Made by a program: the position numbers and the translations under genes. The notes under the pieces were generated by a model. It saw only the letters and a program-made list of their open reading frames with translations, did not search any database and was not told the origin of the DNA. Below, in pieces: positions 3,735 to 53,400 of a stretch of DNA of 64,000 nt (positions are counted from its first letter, which is position 1; every line of letters starts with the position of its first letter). The DNA is taken from NCBI GenBank assembly GCA_954871525.1, contig OX940863.1, forward strand, positions 40,224,501 through 40,288,500, in the 5' to 3' direction. This stretch comes from Parietaria judaica (Eukaryota; Streptophyta; Magnoliopsida; Rosales; Urticaceae).

Positions 3735-3822
3735 CAACACATATTCATCGCCCATCTACCCTCAGGCGAATGGCCAAGTCGAATTGGCCAATGAAAACCT
3801 CAAGAAAATCTTGAAGAAAAAG
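3735..3822 (+). pseudogene. gypsy 1 integrase fragment, left of the Mutator-like insertion
   Basis: Translation gives INNTYSSPIYPQANGQVE followed by LANENLKKILKKK. This is the end of a Ty3/gypsy integrase catalytic core; the E of QVE is the expected third catalytic acidic residue. The same segment in gypsy 2 reads INNTYSSPIYPQANGQVE near 54300 on the other strand. The frame stops abruptly at the three lysine codons at 3814-3822 and resumes at 18006 with the same three codons, so 14.2 kb is inserted in the gene. Homology fades left of about 3730, so this gypsy copy is 5'-truncated. Confidence 0.85.
3814..3822. repeat. 9-bp target site duplication, left copy (AAGAAAAAG)
   Basis: AAGAAAAAG encodes K-K-K in the gypsy 1 integrase and is repeated exactly at 18006-18014, where the integrase frame continues. 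Nine base pairs is the usual duplication length for Mutator-like elements. The match is low complexity, but the uninterrupted host reading frame fixes it. Confidence 0.88.
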
Positions 3823-3875
3823 GGGCAAATCGCAACAATGACCTTATTTGGGATTTGGTAGAGGTTTATACCCTC
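3823..3875 (+). repeat. Degenerate terminal inverted repeat, left
   Basis: Aligned without gaps to the reverse complement of 17953-18005, 32 of 53 positions match. Two blocks are perfect and equally placed: ACCTTAT at positions 19-25 and ATACCCTC at positions 46-53 from each end. The very ends (GGGCAAATC versus GAAAGAATT) have diverged. Confidence 0.7.
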
Positions 3876-4196
3876 AGTACTGTTCACATGTTTGGTTCAT
3901 ACCCTTCATTAAACGATGTGGGGCCCTTTGCAGTTCGTTGGGCTCGATTTTCTCTCTCCTCTTATTTTATTATTTTTTCTCTCTCCTCTTTTTTAATATT
4001 CTTTCTTTCCCGCCATGTTTCTCTCTCTTCTGTTATTCGTCTTCTTCTTCGACTCCCCAATTGCCGAGAAACCCTAAGCTCCCATTGTTTCTTCGCCGAC
4101 TCACCGTATTCATTCTCTTCATCTTCTGCGTTACACAGCCAACGATTAGCGAATCTTTCAGCTCTATCATATATCAAGAATTGACTCATTCAAAGG

Positions 4197-4700
4197 TTAG
4201 CCCAGTTTGATAAAGTAATCATAATACTGTTTTCAATTTCTGGATAACATATAGCGGTATGAATATCTTATGTAACGGTACCGAAACCTGTAGGCCGGTT
4301 TTAGGTCTTACACTGTGACTCCTTAATTATAAACTATGAACTAAGGTTAGCCAGTGTAATCAGGTAATTTTATTGCTGTTTTCAATTGCTGGATTAAATA
4401 TAGCAGTATGAATGTTTTGTGTAGCGGTACCGATATACGTAGGCCGAGTATAAACAATAAACTAAGGTTATCCAGTGTAATCAAGTAAATTTTATTTCTG
4501 TTTTCAATTTATGGATAAATTTATAGCGGTATTAATATATTATATAGCGGTACCTATATCTGCATGCCGAATTTAGGTCGTACTCTGTGAATCCTTAAGT
4601 ATAAACTAAGTTGCAAACATACCGCTATGCTATGATATAGTTGTATCCTATAAGCCTATAGCGGTTTAAATTAAGATTGAAGTATTTTTTTCGTTTGCAG
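4197..4700 (+). repeat. Probable leader intron with three motif-bearing repeats before MURA
   Basis: A plausible donor (AAAG|GTTAGC near 4195) and a strong acceptor (TTTTTTTCGTTTGCAG ending at about 4700, just before the ATG) suggest an intron in the 5' leader. It consists of three diverged repeats of about 120-150 bp starting near 4198, 4346 and 4467. Each has a GCTGTTTTCAATT-like segment followed by one or two TAGCGGTA motifs and a CCGAAT/AGGCCG segment. The intron is inferred from splice-like sequence only. Confidence 0.6.
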
Positions 4701-4701
4701 G

Positions 4702-6399
4702 ATGGATATTTACCATTTGATTGTCAGTGTTGGCGGAAAATGGATTTTCAATAGAGATTGTTACAAGTGGTTGTGGGAGGGAATAAGTGATATTGCGAAT
4801 GGTGTTATCGTTTCACAGTCTGCTTTTAACAACATTTCTGATTTGAAGGAGTTTTTATATAACAAGTTTGATATTGTCCGACAATATGATTTGAAGGTAA
4901 CTTATTATCCAGCTAATCGCAGTACTCAGCCAGTAGTCATTGCTGATGAACCTGACTTCGAATCATATATTATGACACCGGATACACCGTCAAGGTTGAA
5001 ACAGCTGTACGTCGAGCTACTGAAAAAGGTATCTCCTGAAGTAGGTACCGAACAAACAACATTTGTGAAAGAAGAGTACCGGGTGCGGCATGTCGACGTT
5101 CCGGATGCTGTTTCATCCCCGGATGCAGAAGGTGTGATACTGTCGCCAATGAGAGGGTGTTCTAATAACTTTACGGGATCCTCTACTTTTCCTATCGGTT
5201 TTGAGTCGGGGGAATAAGGACCGGTGCATAGTTTTCCCGATGGTATGGATCTTATAATTGGTCAGGAGTTTGCATCAAAGGCTGAGTTGAAAAGTGTTGT
5301 GTCCGAGGGTGCTGCAGGACGCTTCGGAGTGAAGTTGATAAAGTCGGACAAGAAATTATACGTGGTCAAATGCCTCGATGAGACACGCGGTTGGAGTTTA
5401 CGTGCAGCGCTGGGGGCAGAGGGGAGGTTTAGAATACGTACATATCACAGCGTCCACACTTGTTCCGTAGACGCATGACAAGGTTTACGCCGGGCCACTT
5501 CGTCGTTGGTTTCCGATGAGATCATAAATAGATACAGTGACCAAAATATGGAAATACCGGACCCGAATGAGATCCGGAGGCATATGGCAGATAAGGGTTA
5601 CAAAATCAGTTACTGGATGGCTACGAGTGGCAAGAGACTTGCCGAATACAAGATTAGAGGTACCCCTGGCAGAATTTTGCGTTGTTACCGGCGTTTCTTT
5701 TTATGGTTGAAAATCAAAACCCGGGTTCCGTGACCTCAATTAAATGTAACCTAGAAGGGGCATTTGAGTATTGTTTCGTGGCATTATACGCGTCGATTCA
5801 AGGATTCAAAAGTATGAGGAAGGTTATTTCGATCGCCGCACATCGATGGCAATCACACAGTTTTTCCACTCGCTTTTGATATTTTATTTTATGAGCGGAT
5901 CGAATCGTGGGAAGAGTTTTTAGAAGATCTGAAAGCAGCGATTCCGGAAACAAGTGAGTTGGTCATCGTAACGGATAGTTGCGGACCTATCAAGAATGCG
6001 TGCAGAAAGGTGTATCGGTTGGCAACTCATGGATCCTCTACTTTTCCTATCGGTTTCGAACAATCGTGGGAAGTGAGGAGTAGCGGAGAGTTTAAGGTGG
6101 TAGATCTTGTAGGCAAGACGTGCTCGTGCAACAAATTTAACTTTGATGGGTACCTATGTGCGCATGCCATCAGCGCAACCACCAGTGCAGGGAAAAACAT
6201 TCACGATTTCTGTCATGCTTTCTACAGTTTCAACCACTGGTTGCTTTCGTATTCTTCGCCCGTAAATGTTATCGAGCTTAATGACGATTGGATGATACCT
6301 GCTTCTGTTACTGCTAATTTTCCGAAGATTGAACCGCCTAGCAGCAAAAAAAAAAAAAAAGAGGATGAAACAAGAGGAAAAGACTACCAAGGAGAGTGA
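4702..6399 (+). pseudogene. MURA-type Mutator transposase, broken and internally deleted
   Basis: The N-terminal part (4702-5217) matches the amino end of plant MURA proteins. The MuDR DNA-binding region follows at 5224-5478 (GQEFASKAELKSVV ... VVKCLDETRGWSLRA). 5506-5733 continues in the same frame, then shifts into LLPAFLFMVENQNPGS ... GFKSMRKVISI (5682-5879). The C-terminal part (5959-6399) has a SWIM zinc finger (CSC ... CAH near 6120-6165). Two in-frame stops (5215-5217 and 5476-5478), a frameshift near 5690, and loss of most of the DDE core between MRKVISI and the ESWEEFLEDL segment near 5905 make it non-functional. A 26-bp segment occurs identically at 5176-5201 and 6031-6056. A poly-A run near 6344 lies at the end of the frame. 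MURA binds and cuts the element ends. Confidence 0.9.
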
Positions 6400-7614
6400 C
6401 GGAAGTATGAGCTGCATATGTAATTTATTATTTATAAGCAGAGGGAAATGTACGCTTAAATTTATTACATCGTTTTAGTACATACTGCTAGACGTTTTAC
6501 GTAAGCGGTACGTACAACTATCTAACTTAATATCAATATATATTTATTACATGTAGTATGTACCACAAATTGTTATACGTACCGCTAGTAGTTTTACGTA
6601 CCGCTAGTTGTTTTACGTACCGCTAGAAATATCTTTGATTCCGGAATATATATCAATCTTAAAAAAGCAAGATTCTATTGGTAAGTACCGCTATATATCT
6701 AACTATTTTGTTTTCCATCTAATAACGGATCTGAGTTGAAATTTCACTTTAATACGAAAGCAGTCGCATATAATCTTGATGTGTTCATCCGAGATGTCAA
6801 TACATTAATACCGCCGCTTACAATACATGAAAATAAAATAATGAATACTTCGGTTACAATACAAAACAACAAAATATTTAGTAGTGTCATCCGAGATGTC
6901 AATACTGGACTTCACCGTAAAATACCGGAGCCATCGTGCTGCCCAAAAATACGCTACACTCTACCGACCTGCTCGACCTTCAATGATAGCATATAGTATA
7001 TACCGCTACAGACAAAAAAAAGTAATTTTGAATCGTTCAACGTCTCTCGCAATAAAGAGAAGCACGGAGCGAAAGAAAAGTTAAATACGCCAAAAAACTT
7101 TTGTCGTATTTAATTTTGATTTCATTCGCCCGATATTCCTCGTTATTGAGAGTTAAGGGGACAGATTCATAAATTAATATTTAATATAATAAATGCTAAT
7201 ACTAAGGTCGAGCTGGAAAGTAAAGGGCAGCATATTTTTGGACGACAGAATGACTCGGGGTGCTTCGGATCGAGTGTGACTGATGGTGACGTTACTGTTA
7301 CATCGTCTGCATTAATAAAAATATTCAAATAAATGATGTTAAGGTCACAAAATAAATAATGTACAAATGGCAAAGCTTTGTAGAGGTAAACAATATAAGT
7401 AAGTACCGGTATTCAAATTCGATGAAATCGGGGACGGCAACGGCGAGAGGTTGAGCCACACGAGCATCTAGGAAGATTAAGCAGAAACATGGTAACCTGG
7501 TCCCCAAAGACAAATCAGATCTGTTAGCTGCCCGACAAGCAACTCTTACGACTCTAACTGTGGTCTATTGAATCAACAATTTTTGTACGTTCAAATTTTT
7601 ATACTATCTCGAAG
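6400..7614. other. Non-coding spacer after MURA with motif copies and short direct repeats
   Basis: TACCGCTA motifs occur near 6582, 6597, 6617, 6684 and 7003, the first three spaced by GTTTTACG. A CATCCGAGATGTCAATAC segment occurs near 6786 and again near 6888. No coding sequence is convincing; the small ORFs at 6736-7084 and 7167-7513 have no motif. Confidence 0.5.
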
Positions 7615-10600
7615 GGTACAAGTAGAATGTAATTATTGCTTCGAAACCTTCACGCATGTTTGGTTAACCATCTTAATGTCCTCGAGGGGCACCACCAACT
7701 ACTGAATTGGGTGAACAATTACTCATGACCACCGACCCGTATTAAACGAACCTATGCGTATCAAATCGCGGGGGGATGGACGCGTGGATGTAAATATTTC
7801 AATTAAAATGTTCGAGAAAACCTGAAACACTAGCAACCGCTAGAAGGACTCCGTCGTCTACCGCTACGCCTATCTGTTCGACCGCTACTGCGTCCCGATA
7901 GCGGTTTGCACGATCCTTCAACGAAATTTGAGCAGGCGTCACTAAATTGATATGTGTTGATGTCCGTATAATAATTACAAGTATAACGTAATTATTGCTT
8001 CGAAACCATCACGCATGTTTGGTTAACCATCTTAATGTCCTCGAGGGGCACCACCAACTACTGAATTGAGTGAACAATTCCTCATGACCACCGACCCGTA
8101 TTAAATGAACCTATGCGTATCATATTGCGGGGGGATGGATGCGTGGATGTAAATATTTCAATTAAAATGTTCGGGAAAACCCGAAACACTAGCAAGCGCT
8201 AGAAGGGCTCCGTCGTCTACCGTTATGCCTATTTGTTCGACCGCTACTGCTTCTCGATAGCGGTTTGCACGATCCTTCTACGAAATTTGAGGAGGCGTCA
8301 AAAAATTGATACGTTTTGATGTCCGTACTCATATTACAAGTAGAACACAATTATTGCTTCAAAACCTTCAGGCATGGTTGGTTAACCATCTTAATGTTCT
8401 CGAGGGGCACCACCAACTACTCAATTGGGTGAACAATTACTCATGACCACCGACCCGTATTAAATGAACTTATGCGTATTAAATCGCGGGGAGATGGACG
8501 CGTCGATGTAAATATTTCAATTAAAATGTTCGGGAAAACCCGAAACATAAGCAACCGCTAGAAGGACTCTGTCGTCTACCGCTATGCCTATCTGTTCGAC
8601 CGCTACTGCTTCCCGATAGCGGTTTGCACGATCCTTCAATGAAATTTTAGGAGGCATCACAAAATTGATACGTGTTGATGTCCGTATAATAATTACAAGT
8701 AAAACGTAATTATTGCTTAGAAACCTTCACGCATGTTTGGTTAACCATCTTAATGTCCTCGAGGGGCACCACCAACTACTTAATTGGGTGAACAATTACT
8801 CATAATCACGAACCCGTATTAAATGAACCTATGCGTATCAAATCGCGGGGGGATGGACGCGTGGATGTATATATTTCAATTAAAATGTCGGGAAACCCGA
8901 AACACTAGCAACCACTAGAAGGACTCCGTCGTCTACCGCTACACCTATCTGTTCGACCGCTACTGCTTCCCTATAGCGGTTTGCACTATCCTTCAACGAA
9001 ATTTTAGGACGCATCACAAAATTGATACGTGTTGATGTCCGTATTCATATTACAAGTAGAACGTAATTATTACTTCGAAACCTTCACGCATGGTTGGTTA
9101 ACCATCTTAATGTCCTCGAGGGGCACCACCAACAACTCAATTGGGTGAACAATTACTCATGACCACCGACCCGTATTAAATGAACCTATGCGTATCAAAT
9201 CGCGGGGGGATGGACGCGTGGATGTTAATATTTCAATTAAAGTGTTCGGGAAAACCCGAAACACTAGCAACCGCTAGAAGGACTTCGTCATCTACCGCTA
9301 CGCCTATATGTTCGACCGCTACTGTGTCCCGATAGCGGTTTGCACGAACCTTCAATGAAATTTGAGGAGGCGTCACAAAATTGATACTTGTTGATGTCCG
9401 TATAATAATTACAAGTAGAACGTAATTATTGGTTCGAAACCTTCACGCATGGTTGGTTAACCATCTTAATGTCCTCGAGGGGCACCACCAACAACTCAAA
9501 TGGGTGAACAATTACTCATGACCACCGACACGTATTAAATGAACCTATGCATATCAAAACACGGGGGGATGGATGCGTGGATGTAAATATTTCAATTAAA
9601 ATGTTCGGGAAAACCCGAAACACGAGATACCGCAAGAAGGACTCTGTCGTCTACCGCTACGCCTATCTGTTTGACCGCTAGTGCTTTCCGATAGCGGTTT
9701 GCACGATCCTTCAACGAAATTTGAGAAGGCGTCTCAAAATTGATACGTGTTGAGGTCCGTATAATAATTACAAGTAGAACGTAATTATTGCTTCGAAACC
9801 TTCACGCATGGTTGGTTAACCATCTTAATGTCCTCGAGGGGCACCACCAACTACTCAATTGGGTGAACAATTACTCATGACCACCAACCCGTATTAGATG
9901 AACATATGCGTATCAAATCGCGGGGGGATGGACGCGTGGATGAAAATATTTCAATTAAAATGTTCAGGAAAACCCGAAACACTAGCAACCACTAGAACGA
10001 CTCCGTCGTCTACCGCTACGCCTATCTGTTCGACCGCTACTGCGTCCCAATAGCGGTTTGCACGATCGTTCAACGAAATTTGAAGAGGCGTCACAAAATT
10101 GATACGTGTTGATGTCCGTATAATAATTACAAGTAGAACGTATTTATTGCTTCGAAACCTTCACGCATGGTTGGTTAACCATCTTAATGTCGTCGGGGGG
10201 CACCACCAACTACTCAATTGGGTGAATAATTACTCATGACCACCGACCCGTATTAAATGAACCTATGCATATCAAATCGCGGGGGGATGGACGCGTGGAT
10301 GTAAATATTTCAATTAAAATGTTCGGGAAAACCCGAAACACTAGATACCGCTAGAAGGACTCCGTCGTCTACCGCTACGCCTATCTGTTCGACCGCTACT
10401 GCTTCCCGATAGCGGTTTGCACGATCCTTCAACGAAATTTGAGGAGGCGTCACAAAATTGATACGTGTTGATGTCCGTATTCATATTACAAGTAGAACGT
10501 AATTATTGCTTCGAAACCTTCACACATGGTTGGTTAACCATCTTAATGTCCTTGAGGGGCACCACCAACTACTCAATTGGGTGAATAATTACTCATGACC

Positions 10601-11430
10601 ACCGACCCGTATTAAATGAACCTATGCGTATCAAATCGCGGGGGGATGGACGCGTGGATGTAAATAATTCAATTAAAATGTTTGGGAAAACCCGAAATAC
10701 TAGATATCGCTAGAAGGACTCCGTCGTCTACCGCTACGCCTATCTGTTCGACCGCTACTGCTTCCCGATAGCGGTTTGCACGATCCTTCAACGAAATTTG
10801 AGGAGGCGTCACAAAATTGATACGTGTTGATGTCCGTATTCATATTACAAGTATAACGTAATTATTGCTTCAAAACCTTCACGCATGGTTGGTTAACCAT
10901 CTTAATATCCTCGACGGGCACCACCAACTACTCAATTGGGTGAACAATTACTCATGACCACCGACCCGTATTAAATGAACCTATGCGTATCAAATCGCGG
11001 GGGGATGGACGCGTGGATGTAAATATTTCAACTAAAATGTTCAGGAAAACCCGAAACACTAGCAACCGCTAGAAGGACTCCGTCGTCTACCGCTACGCCT
11101 ATCTGTTCGACTGCAACTGCGTCCCGATAGCGGTTTGCACGATCCTTCAACGAAATTTGAGGAGGCGTCACAAAATTGATACGTGTTGATGTCCGTATAA
11201 TAATTACAAGTAGAACGTAATTATTTCTTCGAAACCTTCACGCATGGTTGGTTAACCATCTTAATGTCCTCGAGAGGCACCACCAACTACTCAATTGGTT
11301 GAACAATTACTCATAACCACCAACCCGTATTAAATGAACCTATGCGTATCAACCTACGCCTATCTGTTCGACCGCTACTGCTTCCCGATAGCGGTTTGCA
11401 CGATCCTTCAACGAAACCTTCGAAACCTTT
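7615..11430 (+). repeat. 359-bp tandem array, ten full units plus one truncated unit
   Basis: Units start at 7615, 7974, 8333, 8692, 9049, 9408, 9767, 10126, 10485, 10844 and 11203. Every interval is 359 bp except one of 357. Each unit carries GGTTAACCATCTTAATG, a CGCGGGGGGATGGACGCG block, and a cluster of four CCGCTA/TAGCGG motifs within about 85 bp. The cluster includes a 7-bp inverted pair, ACCGCTA and TAGCGGT, with an 11-base loop. The last unit is internally deleted near 11350. There are no long ORFs. The regular length and high identity suggest recent unequal exchange or slippage inside the element. This is not a CRISPR array: the units are long and there are no unique spacers. Confidence 0.95.
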
Positions 11431-11519
11431 ACCCGTAGTTCCTTTCTACCGCTAACTATTTTCTCTTACCGTTATTCTCCGTGTAAGTACCAATATACCC
11501 TCACTAGTATTATAAAACG

Positions 11520-12340
11520 ACAATGAAACAAACCCTAAAGTGCAATCTCAATTCACGCCGCTTTCCTGGACCATTTTGGAAACCCTCATCCAAATCTAGT
11601 TTTGTCCGTAACCGAAATTTAACATGTTTGAACTCAACCACCCAAGGCGTTCATGTTTGTCAACATGCCCCCGTCTCCGTCATCGTCGTAAGCTTTCTTT
11701 AAAGCATTTCTTTATTCTCATATTTTTTTAAAAAATTAGCCTGATTCTAACTTCCTTGTTCATTTGTCTTCCGTTTATCAGGGTACGACTTAACTGAGCC
11801 ATTATGCTACCCAAAAAAATAGCTGCGACCCGTGAAGAAAACCCGACATGCCCATCGGGGAAGTACGAAGAAATCCCAAGTACGAACATGTTATGCATTG
11901 CAAAAGGTGTTCGCCATCAATTCTTCCGTCGGGCTCGCAGCGGTGCTGACAGACACAAACTATTGAATTATGGACATTTTGTCTATAGTTCAATGGCTTA
12001 TGTCTGTCCGGTGTTCAATTTTCTTATGAACACCGGACTTGTTGCCACTTTTCTGTCGGGGACGAATCTCGAGGAAGAGAGGTCCAGCCATCAATTCTTC
12101 ACTGGATATTATAAGGCTTATCAGGCTCCCTCCTCCGGTTTTATACGAGTTGTTTTTATCCACGGTTGGTCCCTATATCACCCCGTCCATCAGGAAGTAC
12201 GACGAGGGTGTCCTATGCATTTATATTTGTATTTGTTTTTTTTAAATATTTTTGTATTTTTATTGTTTAATAAACAAAATTCAAAACAATACAAATTGTA
12301 TTCCTGTATTTGTATTCCAATTAAATTATTACTTACATAG
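11520..12340 (+). CDS. Possible third gene of the Mutator-like element, unrecognised
   Basis: A TATAAAA-like stretch near 11510 precedes an untranslated region. A good intron (TCGTC|GTAAGC at about 11690 to TTTATCAG at about 11780) is followed by an ATG at 11804 opening a 178-residue frame. The first 80 or so residues are basic with C and H residues (MLPKKIAATREENPTCPSG); the last 40 run into A/T-rich sequence and become hydrophobic (LYLYLFFLNIFVFLLF), which is probably not real coding. The opening loosely resembles the starts of DUF1985-type proteins, but I cannot assign it. It could be a relic of a second accessory gene. The leader intron supports former transcription; function is unknown. 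Confidence 0.4.
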
Positions 12341-13075
12341 CGGCAAGTATCGATTTATATAGCGGCAAGTATCTATTTACATAGCGGCAATCGTATGCTT
12401 AATACACAACACTAATTATATATACTAATTTTGTATTCTTTAATAAACAGTAGTAATCCAAACAATAGCGGTAAGTATCTATTATATAGCTACATAGCGG
12501 TAATTGTATATTTACAAAGCGGTAAGAATGTCTATACACATCGTTAAGTGTCTATTTACATAGCGGTAATCGTATTTTTAATACACAACGCGAATGATAT
12601 TTACTAATTTTGTATTCTTTAATAAGCAATAATCCATACAATAGCGGTAAGTGTCTATTATATAGCGGCAAGTAACTCTTCACGTAGAAGTAAGTTGTAT
12701 TTACATAGCGGTATGCATGTACTCGATTTATATAGCGGCAAGAATGTTTTTACATAGCGGTAATCGTATTTTTAATACACAACGCGAATGATGTTTACTA
12801 ATTTTGTATTCTTTAATAAGCAATAATCCATACAATAGCGGTAAGTCTCTATTATATAGCGGCAAGTATCTCTTCACATAGCGGTACGTTTGTATTTACA
12901 TAGCGGTAATTGTATATTTACGAAAAGGTAAGAATTTATTTACGCATCGGTTAGTGTCTATTTACATAGCGGTAATCGTTTTTTTAATACACAATGCGAA
13001 TAATATTTACTAATTTTGTATTCTTTAATAAGAAATAATCCAAACAATAGCGGTAAGTATCTGCGTAGCGGTCAT
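12338..13075 (+). repeat. Degenerate tandem repeats packed with TAGCGGTA/TAGCGGCA motifs
   Basis: At least four diverged units share TACTAATTTTGTATTCTTTA (near 12421, 12602, 12797 and 13010; spacing about 180-215 bp), each followed by AATAGCGGTAAG. About 19 copies of AGCGGTA or AGCGGCA lie in 740 bp, nearly all in the same orientation. It lies just beyond the 3' end of the minus-strand Ulp1 gene, between it and the 11804 ORF. Confidence 0.85.
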
Positions 13076-13622
13076 TGTTCTGATAGCCCGTGTGCGTAAA
13101 TTTCCGCGGCATATCTCATTCTGGCTCTATCTACAAATTTGTCGCTGAATAAGTCAACCGGGTGGTTTAGCATATCAAGCTCTATGAACTTCATGCAGAA
13201 GACCCAACAATCTCCGGTTCCTCCCGTTGGCGATCTATTTTGAGGGCAAGCCACCCGCCTCCACGTCCACCTCTCCCTTTGAGACGTTTAAAGTGATCAT
13301 CGAATGTCAAAATCCACGGTATAATTTTCTTCGGAGCAAGCATGACTTCTTCAAGTTTCTTATCATTGGCGTACGTAATGGTGGAATCGTACAGGACAAA
13401 CTCATCCTTCAATAAATCCGCCTTGCATGAAATCTAGTGCTGACTGTCAAGGTTTATCGGGAAGTAGAGACACTCTCTATGCATCCATGCGCGTTCGTAG
13501 CACCTTCCATTAGTACCGTTGATCCATTCATAAGCGGCTACTACGATATTATCATCATGAATTAAATTCTTTGTTTGAGCCCATATATTAATGTTATTCA
13601 TGAACAACGTCGGGAGAACGAC

Positions 13623-13788
13623 GATTTTATCCGAATCTGGAATAGTCTCTAGAAGCTCAATCAGTCTTTTCCTGAGGCCTTGAATGATTTTATCCGAATC
13701 TGGAATAGTCTCTAGAAGCTCAATCAGTCTTTTCCTGAGGCCTTGAATGATTTTATCCGAATCCGGAATAGTCTCTGGAAGCTCAATT
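13623..13788 (-). repeat. In-frame 63-bp tandem repeat inside the Ulp1 coding exon
   Basis: Units at 13623-13685 and 13686-13748 are identical, with a partial third at 13749-13788 carrying two changes. The unit is 21 codons, so the frame is kept, adding repeats of IQGLRKRLIELLETIPDSDK. It lies before the catalytic histidine segment. The two identical units imply a recent duplication. Confidence 0.9.
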
Positions 13789-14647
13789 AATTGTAAATTG
13801 ATTCAATGTTATAATAGAAATAAATGATTAAATTAGTAATGTAATCCTTGAATACTGATTACCTCATCGTCAAGCCATTTGAATTGGGTCAAGAGGGTAT
13901 GCCACCACTTGTAGTCTCTTTTTTGCAGCACGCATCTCTTACCACCCTTTACGTCTGTTTTGATCTTATTCCAACCACTCGTGAACTGATCGTAGATATC
14001 AGCACGACATATATCAAGCGGGTCGAAGGCAAGAGCCGCACTACGATTTCCCTGTGTGATCTGGAAGTAAACAGATATTGTTACTTATGCTTACCGCTAT
14101 TCATAGTAATTAAATAATACTGCTATTCATAGTAAATAAATAATACCGATACTGTCAACTACGATAACCGCTATGTAAGATTTATTCTAAAATATTCGTA
14201 CCGCTCTAGAACCGCCAAGTTTGACGATGGCGTTGGCCGCTTCATTCTCCTCCTTACGCTTCTTCTCCTCCTCAATCTTCCGTGCCTCCTCCTCCTGTTT
14301 CTCCTTCTCCTCCTTCGTCCGCTTCCTCTCCTCCTTCTCCTCCTTCATCCGCTTCCTCTCCGCCGCAATCTTCCGCGCCTCCTCCTCCAGCTTCTCCTTC
14401 TCCTCCTCCTCCTTCATCCGCTTCCTCTCCTCCTCCTCCTTCTCCTTTTCCTCCTTCATCCGCTTCCTCTCCTCCCCAATCTTCAGCGCCTCCTCCTCCA
14501 ACTTCTCTTTCTCCTGCTTCATCCGCTTCCTCTCCTCCTCCTTCTCTTTCTCCTCCTTCTTCCGCGCCTCCTCCTCCTCCTTCCGCTTCCTCTCCTCCTC
14601 AATCTTCCGCGCCTCCTTCTCCTTCTCCTCCTCAATCTTCCGCGCCT

Positions 14648-14715
14648 CATCCCCCTCCTCCTCCTCCTCCTCCTCCTCCTCCTCCTCCTCCTCCTCCTCC
14701 TCCTCCTCCTCCTCG
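14648..14715 (-). repeat. (CCT)n microsatellite encoding a glutamate run
   Basis: About 20 CTC/CCT triplets in a row. On the minus strand they encode a poly-glutamate tract at the start of the E/K-rich coiled coil of the DUF1985/Ulp1 gene. The wider 14260-14720 region is a diverged CTCCTTC-type repeat giving EERKRMKEEKEK-like heptads. Confidence 0.9.
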
Positions 14716-15825
14716 ACATTGACTCCTTCCACCTCGTACGACTTCGCAACTTCGCGGGCATATTCAAATGGATCGGAATGATTCGACCTTTCTTCCGCTT
14801 CATTCTTCTCTCTCACAACGTCGGCATCATACATATGTTGGTACTGAGAGACCAATCCTTTGCTTAAGTTCAAATATTGATCGACGACGCCACTCGCAGG
14901 CACCAGTGACAAATGAGCAGCACCACCATCTGTTTCTTGAACTTGACGTAATCCTTATGATGAGCCTAGTTTGTCAATTGCCTCCTGCTCCCGAATGTTG
15001 TCATTCGTACTCGGGCGGGAATTCACATTCAGAGGTTCTATCTCAACGTCAGACTGCTCTGAATCCGAGGCCTCCCTCGACGATACTCGGCCTGAAGGCA
15101 CCCCCGATCGCAACTATCTATATAAGCACCTTGCCGCTTCGGTTACTGCATCCTCCTCGTGGTTGAGAGGGGAAGGCTGTCGCTGACCAAGCAACATACT
15201 GGTTCAGTTGTGCAATAACCAAGTTATCAAATCTACACAGTGCGAAAGATTTTGTTGATCCGATGCCGAAGGAGGAGTGGTCGCCGTCTCATTTTCCCGT
15301 CGTTCAACCCTCTGACACTTGTTCGTTGTTTTGGATGCCGAGACGGGAGCGGTGGAGTGGGTACTCTGTCTTTTTCTTGAGACTTGTGGTGGCGATGATC
15401 CACTATCGGACGTGCTCTGGCTCTCAACGTACCGTCGGTTGCGACGTGGGCGTCCAGACGCCGAAACAGGGCTCAGTCTCTTACCTCCGCATCGTTGGGA
15501 CTTGGAAACCAACTTCTTCTCTCTTGGAGGGGGTGAAGGCGATTTACGTTGCCTCCCGGAGTATGTTCTCCGTGCTGCTCTACGAGGAGGAGCATTCTCT
15601 TCCTCTCCTGGCCGTTTTTCCCGCGCAGGTGCCGGAGGGGGAGGCGTCTGAATGATCCGCTCACCTCTCTCCAAGAAATCCACGAGCGTTTCAAAGTTCA
15701 AGTTTGGAGACTTTACACGCGTCGGGAGAAATTGAATGGACGACGTCACTTCTTCCTCTGTGGTGGGAAAGAGCATACTCTTTTGCTCCTGTAATATAAT
15801 ATTGGATATCATTACTTAGTTACTG

Positions 15826-16110
15826 CTAGAGATGACTATAACCGCTATGTTACCGCTATCATATCTGCTATACCGCTACAAACGACTATAACCTCTATAT
15901 TACTGCTATGATATAACCGCTATGTTACCGCTATCATATCTGCTATACCGCTACAAGCGATTATAACCTCTATGTTACCGCTATTTTATAACCGCTATGT
16001 TACCGCTATAACAGTTATGTTACCGCTATCATATATGCTATACCGCTAAAACGACTATAACCTCTATGTTACCGCTATGATGTAACCGGTATGTTACCGC
16101 TATCATATCT
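15826..16110 (-). repeat. Motif array in an intron of the DUF1985/Ulp1 gene
   Basis: Repeats of about 76 bp with AACCGCTATGTTACCGCTAT and CTATACCGCTACAA, starting near 15839 and 15915 and degrading to the right. At least 12 TACCGCTA-type motifs are present. It lies between exon 2 (ending 16383) and the next coding block (from about 15790), so it is intronic on the minus strand. Confidence 0.85.
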
Positions 16111-17142
16111 GCCACGTGTAGAGCAACTGACCTCTGGAGCACTTTTCAAAATAACGGGGGTGATATCTTCGAACTCCTTATGCTCTGTCCCGATTGGCCT
16201 AGTTTTCCATCTACACATACGAGGTGCGCCGGCGGGCGACCTCGAGGGTCAGCTAAGTACGCTGCCACCGCCGGCAAACACTCATACGCCAAAAACTGCA
16301 TGAAGTTTGAATGTTAATTTGAATTATGTGTAAGAACCATTTATACGGTGAATATAAATAGATTCAAACACTTTACATATACCTGTATTGGGTGAACGAA
16401 CCCCAGAAGGGTCATATCTACACAATTTAGTTTTTTCTCGATGACGAGAAAATACTTATCCACCAGTTCTCTCGACAGCTTATGATGAAGTTGCTTCATT
16501 GAGTACTCGAAGGACACTGTCCCCCAAGGATAGCCGGCGAAGAAAGCAATGTCCTCTACCATTGCAAGCAGATCATCATCCGGCTTCTGCGTCGGTCTGT
16601 CCTTGAAATAGATCACTCCGAAGACGATGCACAGGTAGGCCAAATGCTTTTTATCATCGCTGCCCAATGGTTTTTTGTGAATATCCTTGAGTCGATCCTG
16701 AATATTCTTGATAGTAATCCGCTTCTTCTCCGAAGGCCATAAGCGTTTTTTGAAATCATTGTAGAACGCTCGTGACTGATCCTCGGTTTGCGGTAACTTT
16801 GGCACTGGGTGGCAAAGCAGCCCGGTGATGATGGCGAATTCCCGAATGCTGTATTGCAGTGGGACGTTGTTTACCAAGAACCACAGCTCACCTGCGTCCC
16901 TTTGTTCTATCGTCATTCTCACCATCAAACTCCACAACAATTGGGCAGCGTGCTCGTAGTGTGTCGGGACATCTAATAGATGCCCAAATTGTATTTCCCG
17001 GAACCAATGAAGCTCATCCGCATTCAGTGATCCTTTAATGATAGTGGTCACTGTTTCGAATTGAGTTTGCCTTGTGGTAAGCTTATTCTTGTAGTGTTCA
17101 TTCTCCTGCAACTCAGTATGTAGAACTAACGGCTGCTGCAAA

Positions 17143-17492
17143 TCGAATCAAGAATAATATATTAAATCGAATCGAATCAAGAATAAACCAGTATAACTAG
17201 CGGTATTTTTCCATGAATAGCGGTATAGGTTACTAGCGGTGTGGATACCGCTAGCCAAAACATAGCGGTATGGCTACCGTAAGCCAAAACATAGCAGTAT
17301 GGCTAGCGGTAGTTTACTAAACCATATCGGGAGTCATCAAATATTACTACATCCATCATCTTAGTATTCCTTTAAACCTTAAACTAGACCAAACCGTAAA
17401 ATCCTTGTACACTATGTAAACCCTAACATCGATACAAGTTCAAAGTTCAAACAGTACCAGAAACATCAAAAAGTTTAAAAATAGACATTTAC
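17143..17492 (-). repeat. First intron of the DUF1985/Ulp1 gene with seven motif copies
   Basis: Bounded by GAG|GTAAAT (donor, 17492) and TTTGCAG (acceptor). Motifs lie between about 17195 and 17310 in both orientations: TAGCGGTATT, TAGCGGTATAG, ATACCGCTAG, CATAGCGGTATGG and variants. It is otherwise A/T-rich with no ORF. Confidence 0.65.
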
Positions 17493-17498
17493 CTCCAT

Positions 17499-17952
17499 TG
17501 AAGATGATTAGTATATGCTGGAGAACAACAAAAGACGATGATCGGTTCCGAAATATGCTTCCTGTTTCCTGGTTGCACGTCTCGAACGAAAGAAGAAGTT
17601 GGTCGTTTATGCAGCAGTCGGAAGGAAAGACAAGAGAGGCACGAAAGTATGCCGTCGGTTGTTGGAAGGAGGTCGGAGGATGAATCGTCGATGGCGGTGG
17701 AAGGAAAAAAAAGGTTCGGTTTAAGAGGGAAAACGAGGGGAAGACGAAGAATATATGTTTGAGAAAAAAATAAGAATAATATTATCAAATCTTACTGTAT
17801 CAACTGCTGCAAAGGGTAAATCCGAGATTTCGTAAAATACAGTGTAAACTAAAAGGGCAAAATCGTCATTCCAAGTTCTTTAGATTTAAAAATAATGCGA
17901 AAAGGAAATAAGGGATTTAAAAATAAATGTAAAAGAAATAGCAGGTTATAAC
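17499..17952 (-). promoter_or_regulatory. Upstream region of the DUF1985/Ulp1 gene
   Basis: About 450 bp between the probable start codon and the right terminal repeat. It should hold the leader and promoter of the minus-strand gene. I could not fix a TATA box or start site. The TAGCGGTA motif does not appear here, unlike in the introns and spacers. Confidence 0.3.
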
Positions 17953-18005
17953 GAGGGTATGCAGCGAAACGACATCTCAGATAAGGTCTGTCAGCCAATT
18001 CTTTC
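17953..18005 (-). repeat. Degenerate terminal inverted repeat, right
   Basis: Counterpart of the left repeat. On the minus strand ACCTTATCTGAGAT begins 18 bases from the end and ATACCCTC 45 bases from the end, at the same distances as on the left. The target duplication AAGAAAAAG follows immediately at 18006. Confidence 0.7.
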
Positions 18006-18014
18006 AAGAAAAAG
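18006..18014. repeat. 9-bp target site duplication, right copy (AAGAAAAAG)
   Basis: Exact copy of 3814-3822. The codons K-K-K lead straight into LDEKKVKWAEEAPSVLWAY of the gypsy 1 integrase. Confidence 0.88.
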
Positions 18015-18519: not shown

Positions 18520-19212
18520 CCGCCATGCTAGCCGACATAACGACGGGATTGCAATTTCTTACCGCTTTTGATATACGTCGGGCACGAGAATAGCTCCGAT
18601 CGCGTGTATGTGTAACCATCTACTAATCATGAATAAAGAAAGCTTCGCGAAGCACATTTAGATTCTCTCCATGAAATGATTTCTCCAAGAATACGAGTCA
18701 CCACTTCTGCCTGATCTCTATGGGTTATCAAAAAGTTGATGGAATAACTAAAAACAACTAGGAACAACTCGCTCAAAAAGCAGGACTTCCTGGTAAAAAG
18801 TGCAAAACTGTACGCTGCTCGAGCGCAGACATCGGCAAAATACCAAAGCAAACTTTGGCGCATGTCAATGACCGTAAGTCGCTCAAACCGCGAACACAGG
18901 TAGAAGCTTGTGGGGCTAGACGCTTAGGCGCGAACCCCGACTAAAAGACAACATATATTTGGCATAATTTCAAAATTGTAAGCCGCTCGAGGGTAGACAT
19001 CGGCGAAAGATCAGAGCGAACTCTAGCGCAAGTCCGGACCGTAAGCCGCTTAAAGCGCGAACACCGGAAGAAGCTCCGGGGGCTAAACGCTTAAGCGTGA
19101 ATCCCGACTGAAACACCGAATGACACATTTTAGGCAAAGATCAGAAAAATAAGTCGCTCAGGCGAAAATTCTGACAAAATAAACGTACACGAAAACCCCC
19201 ACGAATATATAT
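18520..19212 (+). repeat. gypsy 1 3' untranslated region with 168-bp tandem repeats
   Basis: Two diverged units (ATCGGC anchors at 18831 and 18999, a third partial unit after 19140) carry AAGTCGCTCA/AAGCCGCTC, ACGCTTAG/ACGCTTAAG and GCGCGAAC elements. Gypsy 2 has related words (AAGTCGCTCACAAAGCGC, ACGCTCAACAAAGCG on its own strand) in its 80-bp array at the same place, between integrase and polypurine tract. Confidence 0.7.
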
Positions 19213-33971: not shown

Positions 33972-35170
33972 GTTAATGCGTAAAAATGGCTTTAACTTAG
34001 GGTCGGATCCAAGGTTCGGGTCCCAAGATTGACCCGCTGAACACGTGGATAATTGAATGCTGAGTCAACGCGGGTTGACTAATGATCGTTAAAGCTGGAA
34101 GCGAATCCGTCGTCTTGGATGAGTCTATGGGTTGTCCTTGGCGATCCTCGGCAAACTTCCCTCGTGGGGGCGAAGTCCGTATCACAGCGAAGCTCCTCGT
34201 CGGACTCCCCTTGTGGTGGCGAAGTCCGGGCAGGGTCCTTGTCTTAGCGAAGCTCCTCGTCTGAGCAGAGTCCTTGTCTTGGCAATATCCTCGTCTAGGC
34301 GAACTCCGGTCTTGATGAAGCTCCGAGCTGGTCTTGATGATTCTTCGTGATTCTCCTTCCTTGGCAAGATCCTACGGCGAGGGAGGACCTTCAAAAAAGG
34401 GTGGATTGGGCCCGTGCCCCGACACTTATGGTTCGGCGAGGCTGCCTACGTATCTCAGTTTAAGAGAATCAGGTCCCACCTAGTTCGAGGTTAGTGATAA
34501 ACGGCAGGTGAATGACGATGTGGTTTGACTCGTCGAAAGTACCGATGTTGGCGGCACGGGGGTGACCCTTGGCCAGGCGGCTGGGTATTATCGGCGCGAA
34601 GTGTTCTTCGTTGACCCCGTCGGCGTATGCGAGCTCGTTGTGACGAGGGGCCTTATCCGGACGAGGAGTGCTCCTTGTCGACCTCCAGGGGCCTGTGAAT
34701 TTTTCTCCTGCTGCAGGGTAGTTGCCGCGGCCCCTAGCCCTGTCAAGGGGCTCGTCGGTGCTTCTTGATTCATCTTTGATGTCTTCTGGTTGTCCGCGAG
34801 TTTGTATGTTGAGTCCGGGAGAATCTGGAGGATTTCCCGGGGATCTTCGTGATCTCGGATCTCCTAGTCATGTGGAATAATTAAAGTTATGCCCTCGTCA
34901 AGTTATGACGAGGGTGCTTGTCAGGCTTTCCACCTTGTCGGCCTCGTCGCCTCGTCGGCCTCGTCGCCTCGTCGGCCTTGTCGACTCGTCGGTCTCGTCG
35001 CCTCGTCGGCTTCGTCGCCTAATCGGCCTTGTCGGCTTGTCGCCTCGTCGGCCTTGTCGGCTTGCCACCTCGTCGGCCTTGTTCCCTCGTCGGCCTTGTT
35101 CCCTCGTCGGCCTTTTGACATTTACCAAAAGGGGCCCAGTTTTTATATGTTACTAAAAAAGAACATAACA
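33972..35170. mobile_element. Solo LTR, 1.2 kb, in the right palindrome arm
   Basis: TGTTAATGCG ... ACATAACA flanked by ATAAG on both sides (33967-33971 and 35171-35175). The left palindrome arm supplies the empty site (CGGTTTTCTTAATAAAGTTTACC). It is G/C-rich compared with its surroundings and unrelated to the copia LTRs. Orientation was not determined. It contains a minisatellite of CTCGTCGGCCTTGTC-like units at 34930-35125. Confidence 0.85.
34930..35125. repeat. Minisatellite of CTCGTCGGCCTYGTC units inside the solo LTR
   Basis: About 13 units of roughly 15 bp with variation between GTCGCC, GTCGGCT and GTTCC endings. It produces several spurious R/P/A-rich ORFs on both strands. A palindrome CCCTCGTCA...TGACGAGGG lies just upstream near 34892-34915. 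Confidence 0.8.
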
Positions 35171-52332: not shown

Positions 52333-53400
52333 GTGCTAGAAGCGATCTGTAATCTCGGAGCCAGGTCACGCTTTGTCGAGCGTTTAAGAACCCTGGTCTT
52401 ATTTCAAGATGCGCTTTGTGAGCGACTTCTAATCTTTGAGCCAGGTCACACTTTGTTGAGTGTTTAAGAGCCCTGGTCTTATTTCAAGATACGCTTTGTG
52501 AGCGACTTGTAATCTTGGAGCCGGGTCACATTTTGTTGAGTGTTTAAGAGCCCTGGTCTTATTTCAAGATGCGCTTTGTGAGCGACTTGTAATCTTGGAG
52601 CTAGGTCACGCTTTGTTGAGCATTTAAGAGCCCTAGTCTTATTTCAAGATGCGCTTTGTGAGCAACTTGTAATCTTGGAGCCAGGTCACGCTTTGTTGAG
52701 TGTTTAAGATCCCTGGTCTTATTTCAAGATGCGCTTTGTGAGCGACTTGTAATCTTGGAGCCAGGTCACGCTTTGTTGAGCGTTTAAGATCCCTGGTCTT
52801 ATTTCAAGATGCGCTTTGTGAGCGACATGTAATCTTGGAGCCAGGTCACACTTTGTTGAGCGTTTAAGAGCCCTGGTCTTATTTCAATATGCGCTTTGTG
52901 AGCGACATGTAATCTTCGAGCCAGGTCACGCTTTGTTGAGCGTTTAAGAGCAATGGTCTTATTACAAGATGCGCTTTGTGAGCGACTTGTAATCTTGGAG
53001 TCAGGTCACGCTTTGTTGATCGTTTAAGAGCCCTGGTCTTATTTCAATATGCGCTTTGTGAGCGACTTGTAATCTTGGAGCTAGGTCACGCTTTGTTGAG
53101 TATTTAAGAGCCCTGGTCTTATTTCGAGATGCGCTTTGTGAGCGACTTGTAATCTTGGAGCCAGGTCACGCTTTGTTGAGCGTTTAAGAGCCCTGGTCTT
53201 ATTTCAAGATGCGCTTTGTGAGCGACCTGTAATCTTGGAGCCAGGTCACACTTCGTTGAGCGTTTAAGAGCCATGGTCTTATTTCAAGATGCGCTTTGTG
53301 AGCGACTTGTAATCTTGGAGTCGGGTCACGCTTTGTTGAGCGTTTAAGAGCCTTGGTCGTATTTCAAGATGCACTTTGTGAGCGACTTGTACCGAGTGAC
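52333..53400 (-). repeat. 80-bp tandem array in gypsy 2, about 13 units
   Basis: The word CCCTGGTCTT or a close variant recurs exactly every 80 bp at 52391, 52471, 52551 and so on to 53351, with no length change. Each unit contains GCGCTTTGTGAGCGACTTGT and CACGCTTTGTTGAGCGTTTA. It lies between the integrase end and the antisense ORF. Tandem arrays in this part of Tat elements are known and can seed genomic satellites. It is not CRISPR: the whole unit is conserved. Confidence 0.95.

What the first reader, a model, noticed from the sequence alone, without database searches (positions are those of the whole stretch)
3823..18005. Self-contained 14.2-kb Mutator-like element that may be an anti-silencing system with its own motif field
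Seen: exact boundaries, MURA, a DUF1985/Ulp1 gene, and roughly 45 exact AGCGGTA/TACCGCT motifs outside the tandem array plus several per array unit, in introns and spacers. I saw none outside the element. Known: in Arabidopsis VANDAL elements a VANC protein demethylates and activates its own family by recognising short motifs amplified in non-coding DNA, and DUF1985/Ulp1 genes travel in related elements. Inference: TAGCGGTA is the recognition motif of a protein encoded by this family (the DUF1985 product or the 11804 ORF).
Basis: partly seen in the sequence, partly recalled or inferred. Interest (0 to 1): 0.88.

Follow-up and report, generated by a model that had tools for sequence, protein, structure and literature searches.

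The report
Plant transposon with self-marking DNA motif
A large plant jumping gene, related to ones known to strip the plant's silencing marks from themselves, carries dozens of copies of one short DNA word that is probably the docking site of its own anti-silencing protein; the same word marks deeply diverged relatives and an unrelated retrotransposon in this genome.

Summary
Confirmed and extended. The window holds a 14,183-bp Mutator-like element (3822-18004) with an 8-of-9 target duplication and no detected terminal inverted repeat. It carries a decayed transposase, a decayed DUF1985-Ulp1 gene and a third ORF. The DUF1985 exon matches the solved VANC21 protein (PDB 9lnj, E 9.6e-21). All 48 window copies of TAGCGGTA lie inside it; 37 lie outside the tandem array against 0.3 expected, and none of 44 array-free TAGCGGT falls in coding sequence. 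In the same genome 51 of 52 DUF1985 loci examined carry at least two TAGCGGTA, down to about 35-39% protein identity. The introns around the motif do not align between three groups, so one ancestral amplification does not explain it. Motif pairs are 33 times commoner than a reversed control and mostly two or three helical turns apart. Best reading: a VANC/KIU-type anti-silencing transposon with a new target motif; binding and demethylation are untested. Unexpected: the motif is stable across deep subfamilies, unlike Arabidopsis, and Copia LTRs carry arrays of it, which fits hitchhiking but keeps a host-factor explanation alive.

The parts
3813..3821 (.). left copy of the 9-bp target duplication
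   Evidence: GAAGAAAAA against CAAGAAAAA at 18005-18013, 8 of 9
3822..18004 (.). Mutator-like (VANDAL-like) element, whole
   Evidence: interrupts a Gypsy-type integrase frame; right terminus shared with L010 and with family D, 85% over 86 bp; no inverted repeat found between left 200 bp and right 304 bp (best local score 25)
4252..4665 (.). motif cluster upstream of the transposase start (6 TAGCGGT)
4702..6399 (+). transposase pseudogene
   Evidence: pieces match DBD_Tnp_Mut 5.8e-8, MULE 2.2e-6, SWIM 3.5e-7; stops in frame
6581..7008 (.). motif sites behind the transposase (5 TAGCGGT)
7617..11460 (.). 359-bp tandem array and its edge, 36 TAGCGGT
11804..12340 (+). third ORF, 178 aa, function unknown, conserved in the family
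   Evidence: no Pfam match; 161 matches in the genome, many with longer open frames
12466..13072 (.). motif-rich spacer, 22-bp-type repeats (12 TAGCGGT)
13090..14063 (-). Ulp1 (Peptidase_C48) remnant, several frames
   Evidence: 1.5e-6 on the last piece, 0.048 (below cut-off) on a middle piece; that it is one gene with the DUF1985 exon is read from order and strand, no transcript seen
14093..14173 (.). motif sites between exons (2 TAGCGGT)
14187..14912 (-). charged repetitive exon
   Evidence: open frame, no Pfam match
15204..15812 (-). exon downstream of DUF1985
   Evidence: open frame; counterpart in family D, 45% over 51 aa
15841..16102 (.). intron motif array (13 TAGCGGT)
16341..17141 (-). 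DUF1985 exon, VANC21 homologue
   Evidence: Pfam 5e-26; PDB 9lnj VANC21 E 9.6e-21, residues 17-223
17198..17310 (.). motif cluster upstream of the DUF1985 exon (6 TAGCGGT)
18005..18013 (.). right copy of the target duplication

Best explanation
The element is a decayed copy of a VANDAL-like, KIU-type Mutator element whose DUF1985-Ulp1 protein is a VANC homologue. TAGCGGTA is the docking site of that protein, amplified through introns, leaders, spacers and an internal array. Copies with open frames elsewhere in the genome would supply the protein in trans; bound in helically phased groups it would remove silencing marks along the element and its non-autonomous relatives and permit transcription and transposition. 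Shown here: homology to VANC21, the motif field, its recurrence beside DUF1985 genes after turnover of the surrounding introns, the phased spacing. Inferred: that this protein binds this motif, and that binding demethylates.
For: VANC21 homology of the window exon (E 9.6e-21) and of family D's (4.4e-14). Motif 37 against 0.33 expected outside the array, 0 of 44 in coding, 18 flank contexts. 51 of 52 DUF1985 loci carry at least two TAGCGGTA against a genome mean of about 0.03 per kb. Motif-bearing introns do not align between the window, the ~50% group and family D/E, while exons do. In family D TAGCGGTA is the commonest 8-mer, 37 against 0.29 expected. Pairs 2,507 against 75 reversed, spacing 20-22 or 30-34 bp in 28 of 36 spacer groups. 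Published VANC targets are short motifs in non-coding tandem repeats (PMC5735166).
Against: No binding, methylation or expression data. This copy's genes are broken. The motif is the same while DUF1985 drifts to about 35-39% identity, whereas VANC21 and VANC6 read different motifs (PMC5735166); a fast-evolving reader would be expected to change its word. Copia LTRs use the same word. Among 37 close loci motif columns are no better conserved than other intron columns. Exceptions: L046 has no exact TAGCGGTA, 3 of 49 sites of family D lie in its transposase ORF, one AGCGGT lies in a DUF1985 exon of the 30 best loci.
Confidence: 0.68

Rival explanations
1. TAGCGGTA is the site of a host DNA-binding protein, exploited independently by VANDAL-like elements and a Copia family as an enhancer or boundary; the DUF1985 protein does not read it.
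For: Same word in four DUF1985 clades and in Copia LTRs; helical phasing suits any cooperative binder.
Against: 51 of 52 DUF1985 loci carry it. Single sites exceed the reversed control by only about 2,100 genome-wide (16,219 against 14,075), no more than the paired sites (2,507 pairs) can account for; a rough argument. An Arabidopsis element unrelated to VANDAL also carries and answers to a VANC motif (AT9TSD1, PMC5735166), so sharing does not demand a host factor.
Confidence: 0.2
2. TAGCGGTA is a binding site of the transposase or of the 11804 protein, used for transposition or its regulation.
For: The 11804 ORF recurs with the family (161 matches); plant transposon proteins that bind repeated subterminal motifs are known (recalled: TnpA of En/Spm).
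Against: The motif runs through introns and an internal array far from the ends, while the right terminus conserves other sequence (85% over 86 bp with family D). A Copia LTR has no evident use for a MULE transposase.
Confidence: 0.06
3. Passenger: the motif is only part of units that were tandemly duplicated, with no binder.
For: Many sites do lie in tandem units; no column-level conservation among close copies.
Against: 18 flank contexts in the window, 26 in family D, three non-alignable intron backgrounds, none of 44 sites in coding, Copia LTRs.
Confidence: 0.04

Closest known systems
VANDAL21 / VANC21 of Arabidopsis (Hosaka et al. 2017, PMC5735166, passages read; PDB 9lnj, 9lnk)
   Same: DUF1985 protein homologous over about 207 residues; short motif multiplied in non-coding tandem repeats; Mutator-like element
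   Different: Motif TAGCGGTA, not YAGTATTAY; it contains a CG; the gene also has an Ulp1 remnant; the motif is shared by clades with about 35-39% DUF1985 identity
VANDAL6 / VANC6 (PMC5735166, passages)
   Same: As above; its AGTTGTAC motif form shares the frame AG-NNN-TA with TAGCGGTA
   Different: Its other form AGTTGTCC does not fit the frame; different word
KIU-type VANDALs with a captured Ulp1 domain (PMC13317346, passages; primary paper Sasaki et al. 2022 not held)
   Same: DUF1985 and Ulp1 in one element; non-TIR MULE; said to be conserved across eudicots
   Different: I found no report of this motif or of its presence in Copia LTRs (searches)
AT9TSD1 of Arabidopsis (PMC5735166, passage)
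   Same: Element unrelated to VANDAL that carries VANC6 motifs and is hypomethylated by VANC6; parallel to the Copia LTR arrays here
   Different: Here the carrier is a Copia LTR retrotransposon with the arrays in its LTRs; its response is untested

Membership tests
VANDAL-type (non-TIR) MULE | Mutator transposase domains | tested here: met
   DBD_Tnp_Mut, MULE, SWIM on pieces; in family D DBD_Tnp_Mut and MULE on one 524-aa frame
VANDAL-type (non-TIR) MULE | about 9-bp target duplication | tested here: met
   8 of 9 identical
VANDAL-type (non-TIR) MULE | degenerate or absent terminal inverted repeats | tested here: met
   no inverted match between the ends beyond a 22-column AT-rich alignment, score 25
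VANC anti-silencing protein | DUF1985 protein homologous to a proven VANC | tested here: met
   VANC21 E 9.6e-21; next best PDB match 0.1
VANC anti-silencing protein | short motif concentrated in non-coding tandem repeats of the element | tested here: met
VANC anti-silencing protein | motif differs between diverged subfamilies (co-evolution) | tested here: not met
   same 8-mer in 51 of 52 loci of four clades; only a secondary TAGCGGGA in L064 and L066. I treat this as a property reported for Arabidopsis, not as defining
VANC anti-silencing protein | protein binds the motif | not testable with these tools
   needs EMSA or ChIP
VANC anti-silencing protein | expression causes loss of methylation in the family | not testable with these tools
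   needs transgenics and bisulfite data
KIU-type VANC | Ulp1 (Peptidase_C48) domain in the DUF1985 gene | tested here: met
   Peptidase_C48 1.5e-6 on the last piece, same strand, downstream of DUF1985; a single transcript was not shown. In family D the counterpart is 42% over 60 aa without a Pfam match at 0.001 for its frame

The most novel reading that the evidence does not exclude
TAGCGGTA is a long-lived shared password in this plant. A VANDAL-encoded reader has kept one recognition word while its protein diverged to about 35-39% identity, and an unrelated Copia retrotransposon has built 21-bp-phased arrays of the word into its LTRs to borrow the anti-silencing. With the Arabidopsis motifs YAGTATTAY and AGTTGTAC (though not AGTTGTCC) it shares the frame AG-NNN-TA, which would make the three middle bases the part that changes between systems.
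Probability: 0.35. Interest if true: 0.82.

Novelty: new variant of a known kind. Interest (0 to 1): 0.66.

Why it matters
It gives an anti-silencing system outside Arabidopsis with a testable target word, in a genome with well over a hundred DUF1985 matches to each of two query proteins. It questions how general the rapid motif turnover seen in Arabidopsis is. It offers a natural test of whether one transposon class can exploit the anti-silencing of another.

Tried and rejected
The protein-database search for the DUF1985 ORF was not possible (database switched off). A single-sequence fold had mean pLDDT 45 and was not used for fold searches. Column-level conservation of motif sites among 37 loci: no excess over other intron columns (P of random placement reaching the observed value 0.92, 0.93, 0.16, 0.92, 0.62, 0.33 for two introns in each of three reference copies), a negative result. 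First tblastn and blastn of window sequences against L009-L011 gave nothing; L010 was later tied to the family by its terminus, L009 by sequence shared with family D. CG decay: among one-base variants in the 30 best loci TAGCAGTA (28) and TAGTGGTA (19) do not dominate other changes (TAGCGGTT 89, TGGCGGTA 25); not pressed. Phase within one element is not independent because copies are tandem; the spacer-group count is better. The whole-genome Pfam DUF1985 search and the control with the Arabidopsis motif YAGTATTAY did not complete, so DUF1985 loci far from both query proteins, and that negative control, are missing. No clade with a different word was found, and none was reachable with the answered searches.
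Full report
WHAT IS THERE. The element occupies 3822-18004 and interrupts a Gypsy-type integrase frame that resumes after a 9-bp duplication with one mismatch (the integrase label is my reading, not a family search). The two ends show no inverted repeat beyond a 22-column AT-rich alignment. On the + strand lie a transposase pseudogene (pieces match DBD_Tnp_Mut, MULE and SWIM), a 359-bp x 10.4 array and a 178-aa ORF without Pfam match. On the - strand, from the right end inward, lie a DUF1985 exon (5e-26), a further exon, a charged repetitive exon and Ulp1 remnants (Peptidase_C48 1.5e-6 on the last piece; 0.048, below cut-off, on a middle piece). Stops and frameshifts break the transposase and the DUF1985-Ulp1 gene in this copy.

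THE MOTIF. TAGCGGTA (both strands) occurs 48 times in the window, all inside the element; of 52 AGCGGTA one lies outside, at 18560. Outside the array 37 TAGCGGTA stand against 0.33 expected, maximum 2, in 200 Markov sequences. None of the 44 array-free TAGCGGT falls in 5,260 bp assigned to coding, against 5,079 bp of non-coding (exon limits are mine). Comparison of 20-base flanks groups the 44 sites into 18 contexts.

HOMOLOGY TO A PROVEN ANTI-SILENCING PROTEIN. The DUF1985 exon matches VANC21 of Arabidopsis in the PDB (9lnj, 9lnk) with E 9.6e-21 over residues 17-223; the next best chain has E 0.1. VANC21 binds YAGTATTAY in non-coding repeats and its expression causes loss of methylation over its family (PMC5735166, passages). 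A VANC gene with a captured Ulp1 domain is the KIU type, said to be conserved in eudicots (PMC13317346, passages). The primary paper (Sasaki et al. 2022, EMBO J) is not held; from memory its abstract says that motif sequence, density and helical periodicity set specificity. A meeting report mentions a then unpublished VANC21 crystal structure (PMC8756742, passage).

RELATIVES IN THE SAME GENOME. The window lies in a 538.7-Mb assembly, G000:C5. The DUF1985 exon has 147 matches (the tool calls such counts lower bounds). I examined 52 DUF1985 loci: the best 30 (L012-L041, the window's own copy among them), 12 chosen from that list by identity band (L042-L053), one element found through its motif pairs (family D, L056+L057), and 9 chosen by identity band from the 151 matches of family D's protein (L058-L066). 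At least two exact TAGCGGTA occur in 51 of 52: 30 of 30 at 80% identity or more, 5 of 6 at 60-80%, 6 of 6 at 45-60%, 10 of 10 at 30-45%. Without the window's own copy and family D, which was found by its motif, it is 49 of 50. The miss is L046, with two TAGCGGT and no TAGCGGTA. The genome mean is about 0.03 per kb (16,219 in 538.7 Mb), so about 0.1 in a 3-kb locus; a 10-kb stretch beside a family copy that is largely filled by a Gypsy retrotransposon has none (L054). A maximum-likelihood tree gives four DUF1985 groups (A+B, C, D+D', E), each with support 99-100. Against this, among 37 close loci motif columns are not better conserved than other intron columns; if there is selection it shows at the level of whole introns only.

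THE MOTIF OUTLIVES ITS SURROUNDINGS. Between the window and the ~50% group (L049-L053) DUF1985 exons align at 65-67% while the motif-bearing stretches of the two introns do not align, and the repeat unit differs (TAGCGGTAATGTGGTTACA, 19 bp). Family D (DUF1985 41% to the window; transposase 32%) has 37 TAGCGGTA in 12.4 kb, its commonest 8-mer, against 0.29 expected, in 26 contexts; 3 of its 49 TAGCGGT lie in its transposase ORF. For L058-L066, 0 of 41 TAGCGGT lie in sequence alignable to the window or to L050, but 29 of 41 are alignable to family D, so D and E count as one background. That leaves three independent non-coding backgrounds.

SPACING. Two TAGCGGTA with 2-32 bases between occur 2,507 times against 75 for the reversed pattern. 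From 50 distinct strings typed out of the 100 listed, 36 spacer groups remain: 18 have start-to-start distances of 20-22 bp and 10 of 30-34 bp; mean cosine 0.56-0.57 at 10.5-10.75 bp. The listing covers only the first part of contig C1.

OTHER CARRIERS. L010, beside a DHFR gene (Pfam 1.9e-27), has the element's right terminus (local score 69 against at most 28 in five shuffles) and a motif cluster: probably a non-autonomous relative. A Copia retrotransposon family (Retrotran_gag_2, RVT_2, integrase) carries 63-bp repeats with up to three motifs each in its LTRs. A 221-bp probe from L011 finds 42 matches, among them five pairs 5.2-5.4 kb apart, as expected of two LTRs. In L055 both LTRs carry the motif (5 and 2 TAGCGGT) and the interior none. 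AT9TSD1 is an Arabidopsis precedent for an unrelated element that answers to a VANC (PMC5735166).

MECHANISM AND DOUBT. The simplest account is a VANC-type protein that reads TAGCGGTA. What speaks for a host factor is exactly the stability of the word and its use by Copia. Against general host use, single sites genome-wide exceed the reversed control by only about 2,100, no more than the paired sites can account for; this is rough. The frame AG-NNN-TA shared with YAGTATTAY and AGTTGTAC was noticed after the fact (about 1.6% for a random 8-mer on both strands, my arithmetic), and the other VANC6 form, AGTTGTCC, does not fit; it is a hypothesis only.

NOVELTY. The kind of system is known. The word TAGCGGTA, its persistence across deep clades, the CG inside it and its presence in Copia LTRs are what I did not find described, in an open-licence library that lacks the key 2022 paper.

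Noticed in passing
L011:4884-5096; L055:779-869 and 6132-6161; probe hits: A Copia LTR retrotransposon family carries TAGCGGTA arrays (63-bp unit, about 21 bp per motif) in its LTRs and none in the interior of L055.
   Followed up: partly
L010:4188-5030: Motif cluster beside a DHFR gene in a stretch with the element's right terminus: probably a short non-autonomous relative; its other end was not found.
   Followed up: partly
L064, L066: A secondary word TAGCGGGA occurs 5 and 4 times besides TAGCGGTA: possible beginning of motif drift in one subfamily.
   Followed up: no
window 12333-12390: Tandem repeats with TAGCGGCA instead of TAGCGGTA; six TAGCGGCA in the element.
   Followed up: no
L054 and L024 (G000:C3:17174990-17188772): A family copy is cut by a Gypsy retrotransposon next to its DUF1985 gene; that 10-kb stretch has no TAGCGGTA.
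   Followed up: yes
window 52341-53391: An 80-bp tandem array of 13 copies outside the element, not studied.
   Followed up: no
window 34933-35114: A G+C-rich minisatellite with 17-bp units, not studied.
   Followed up: no
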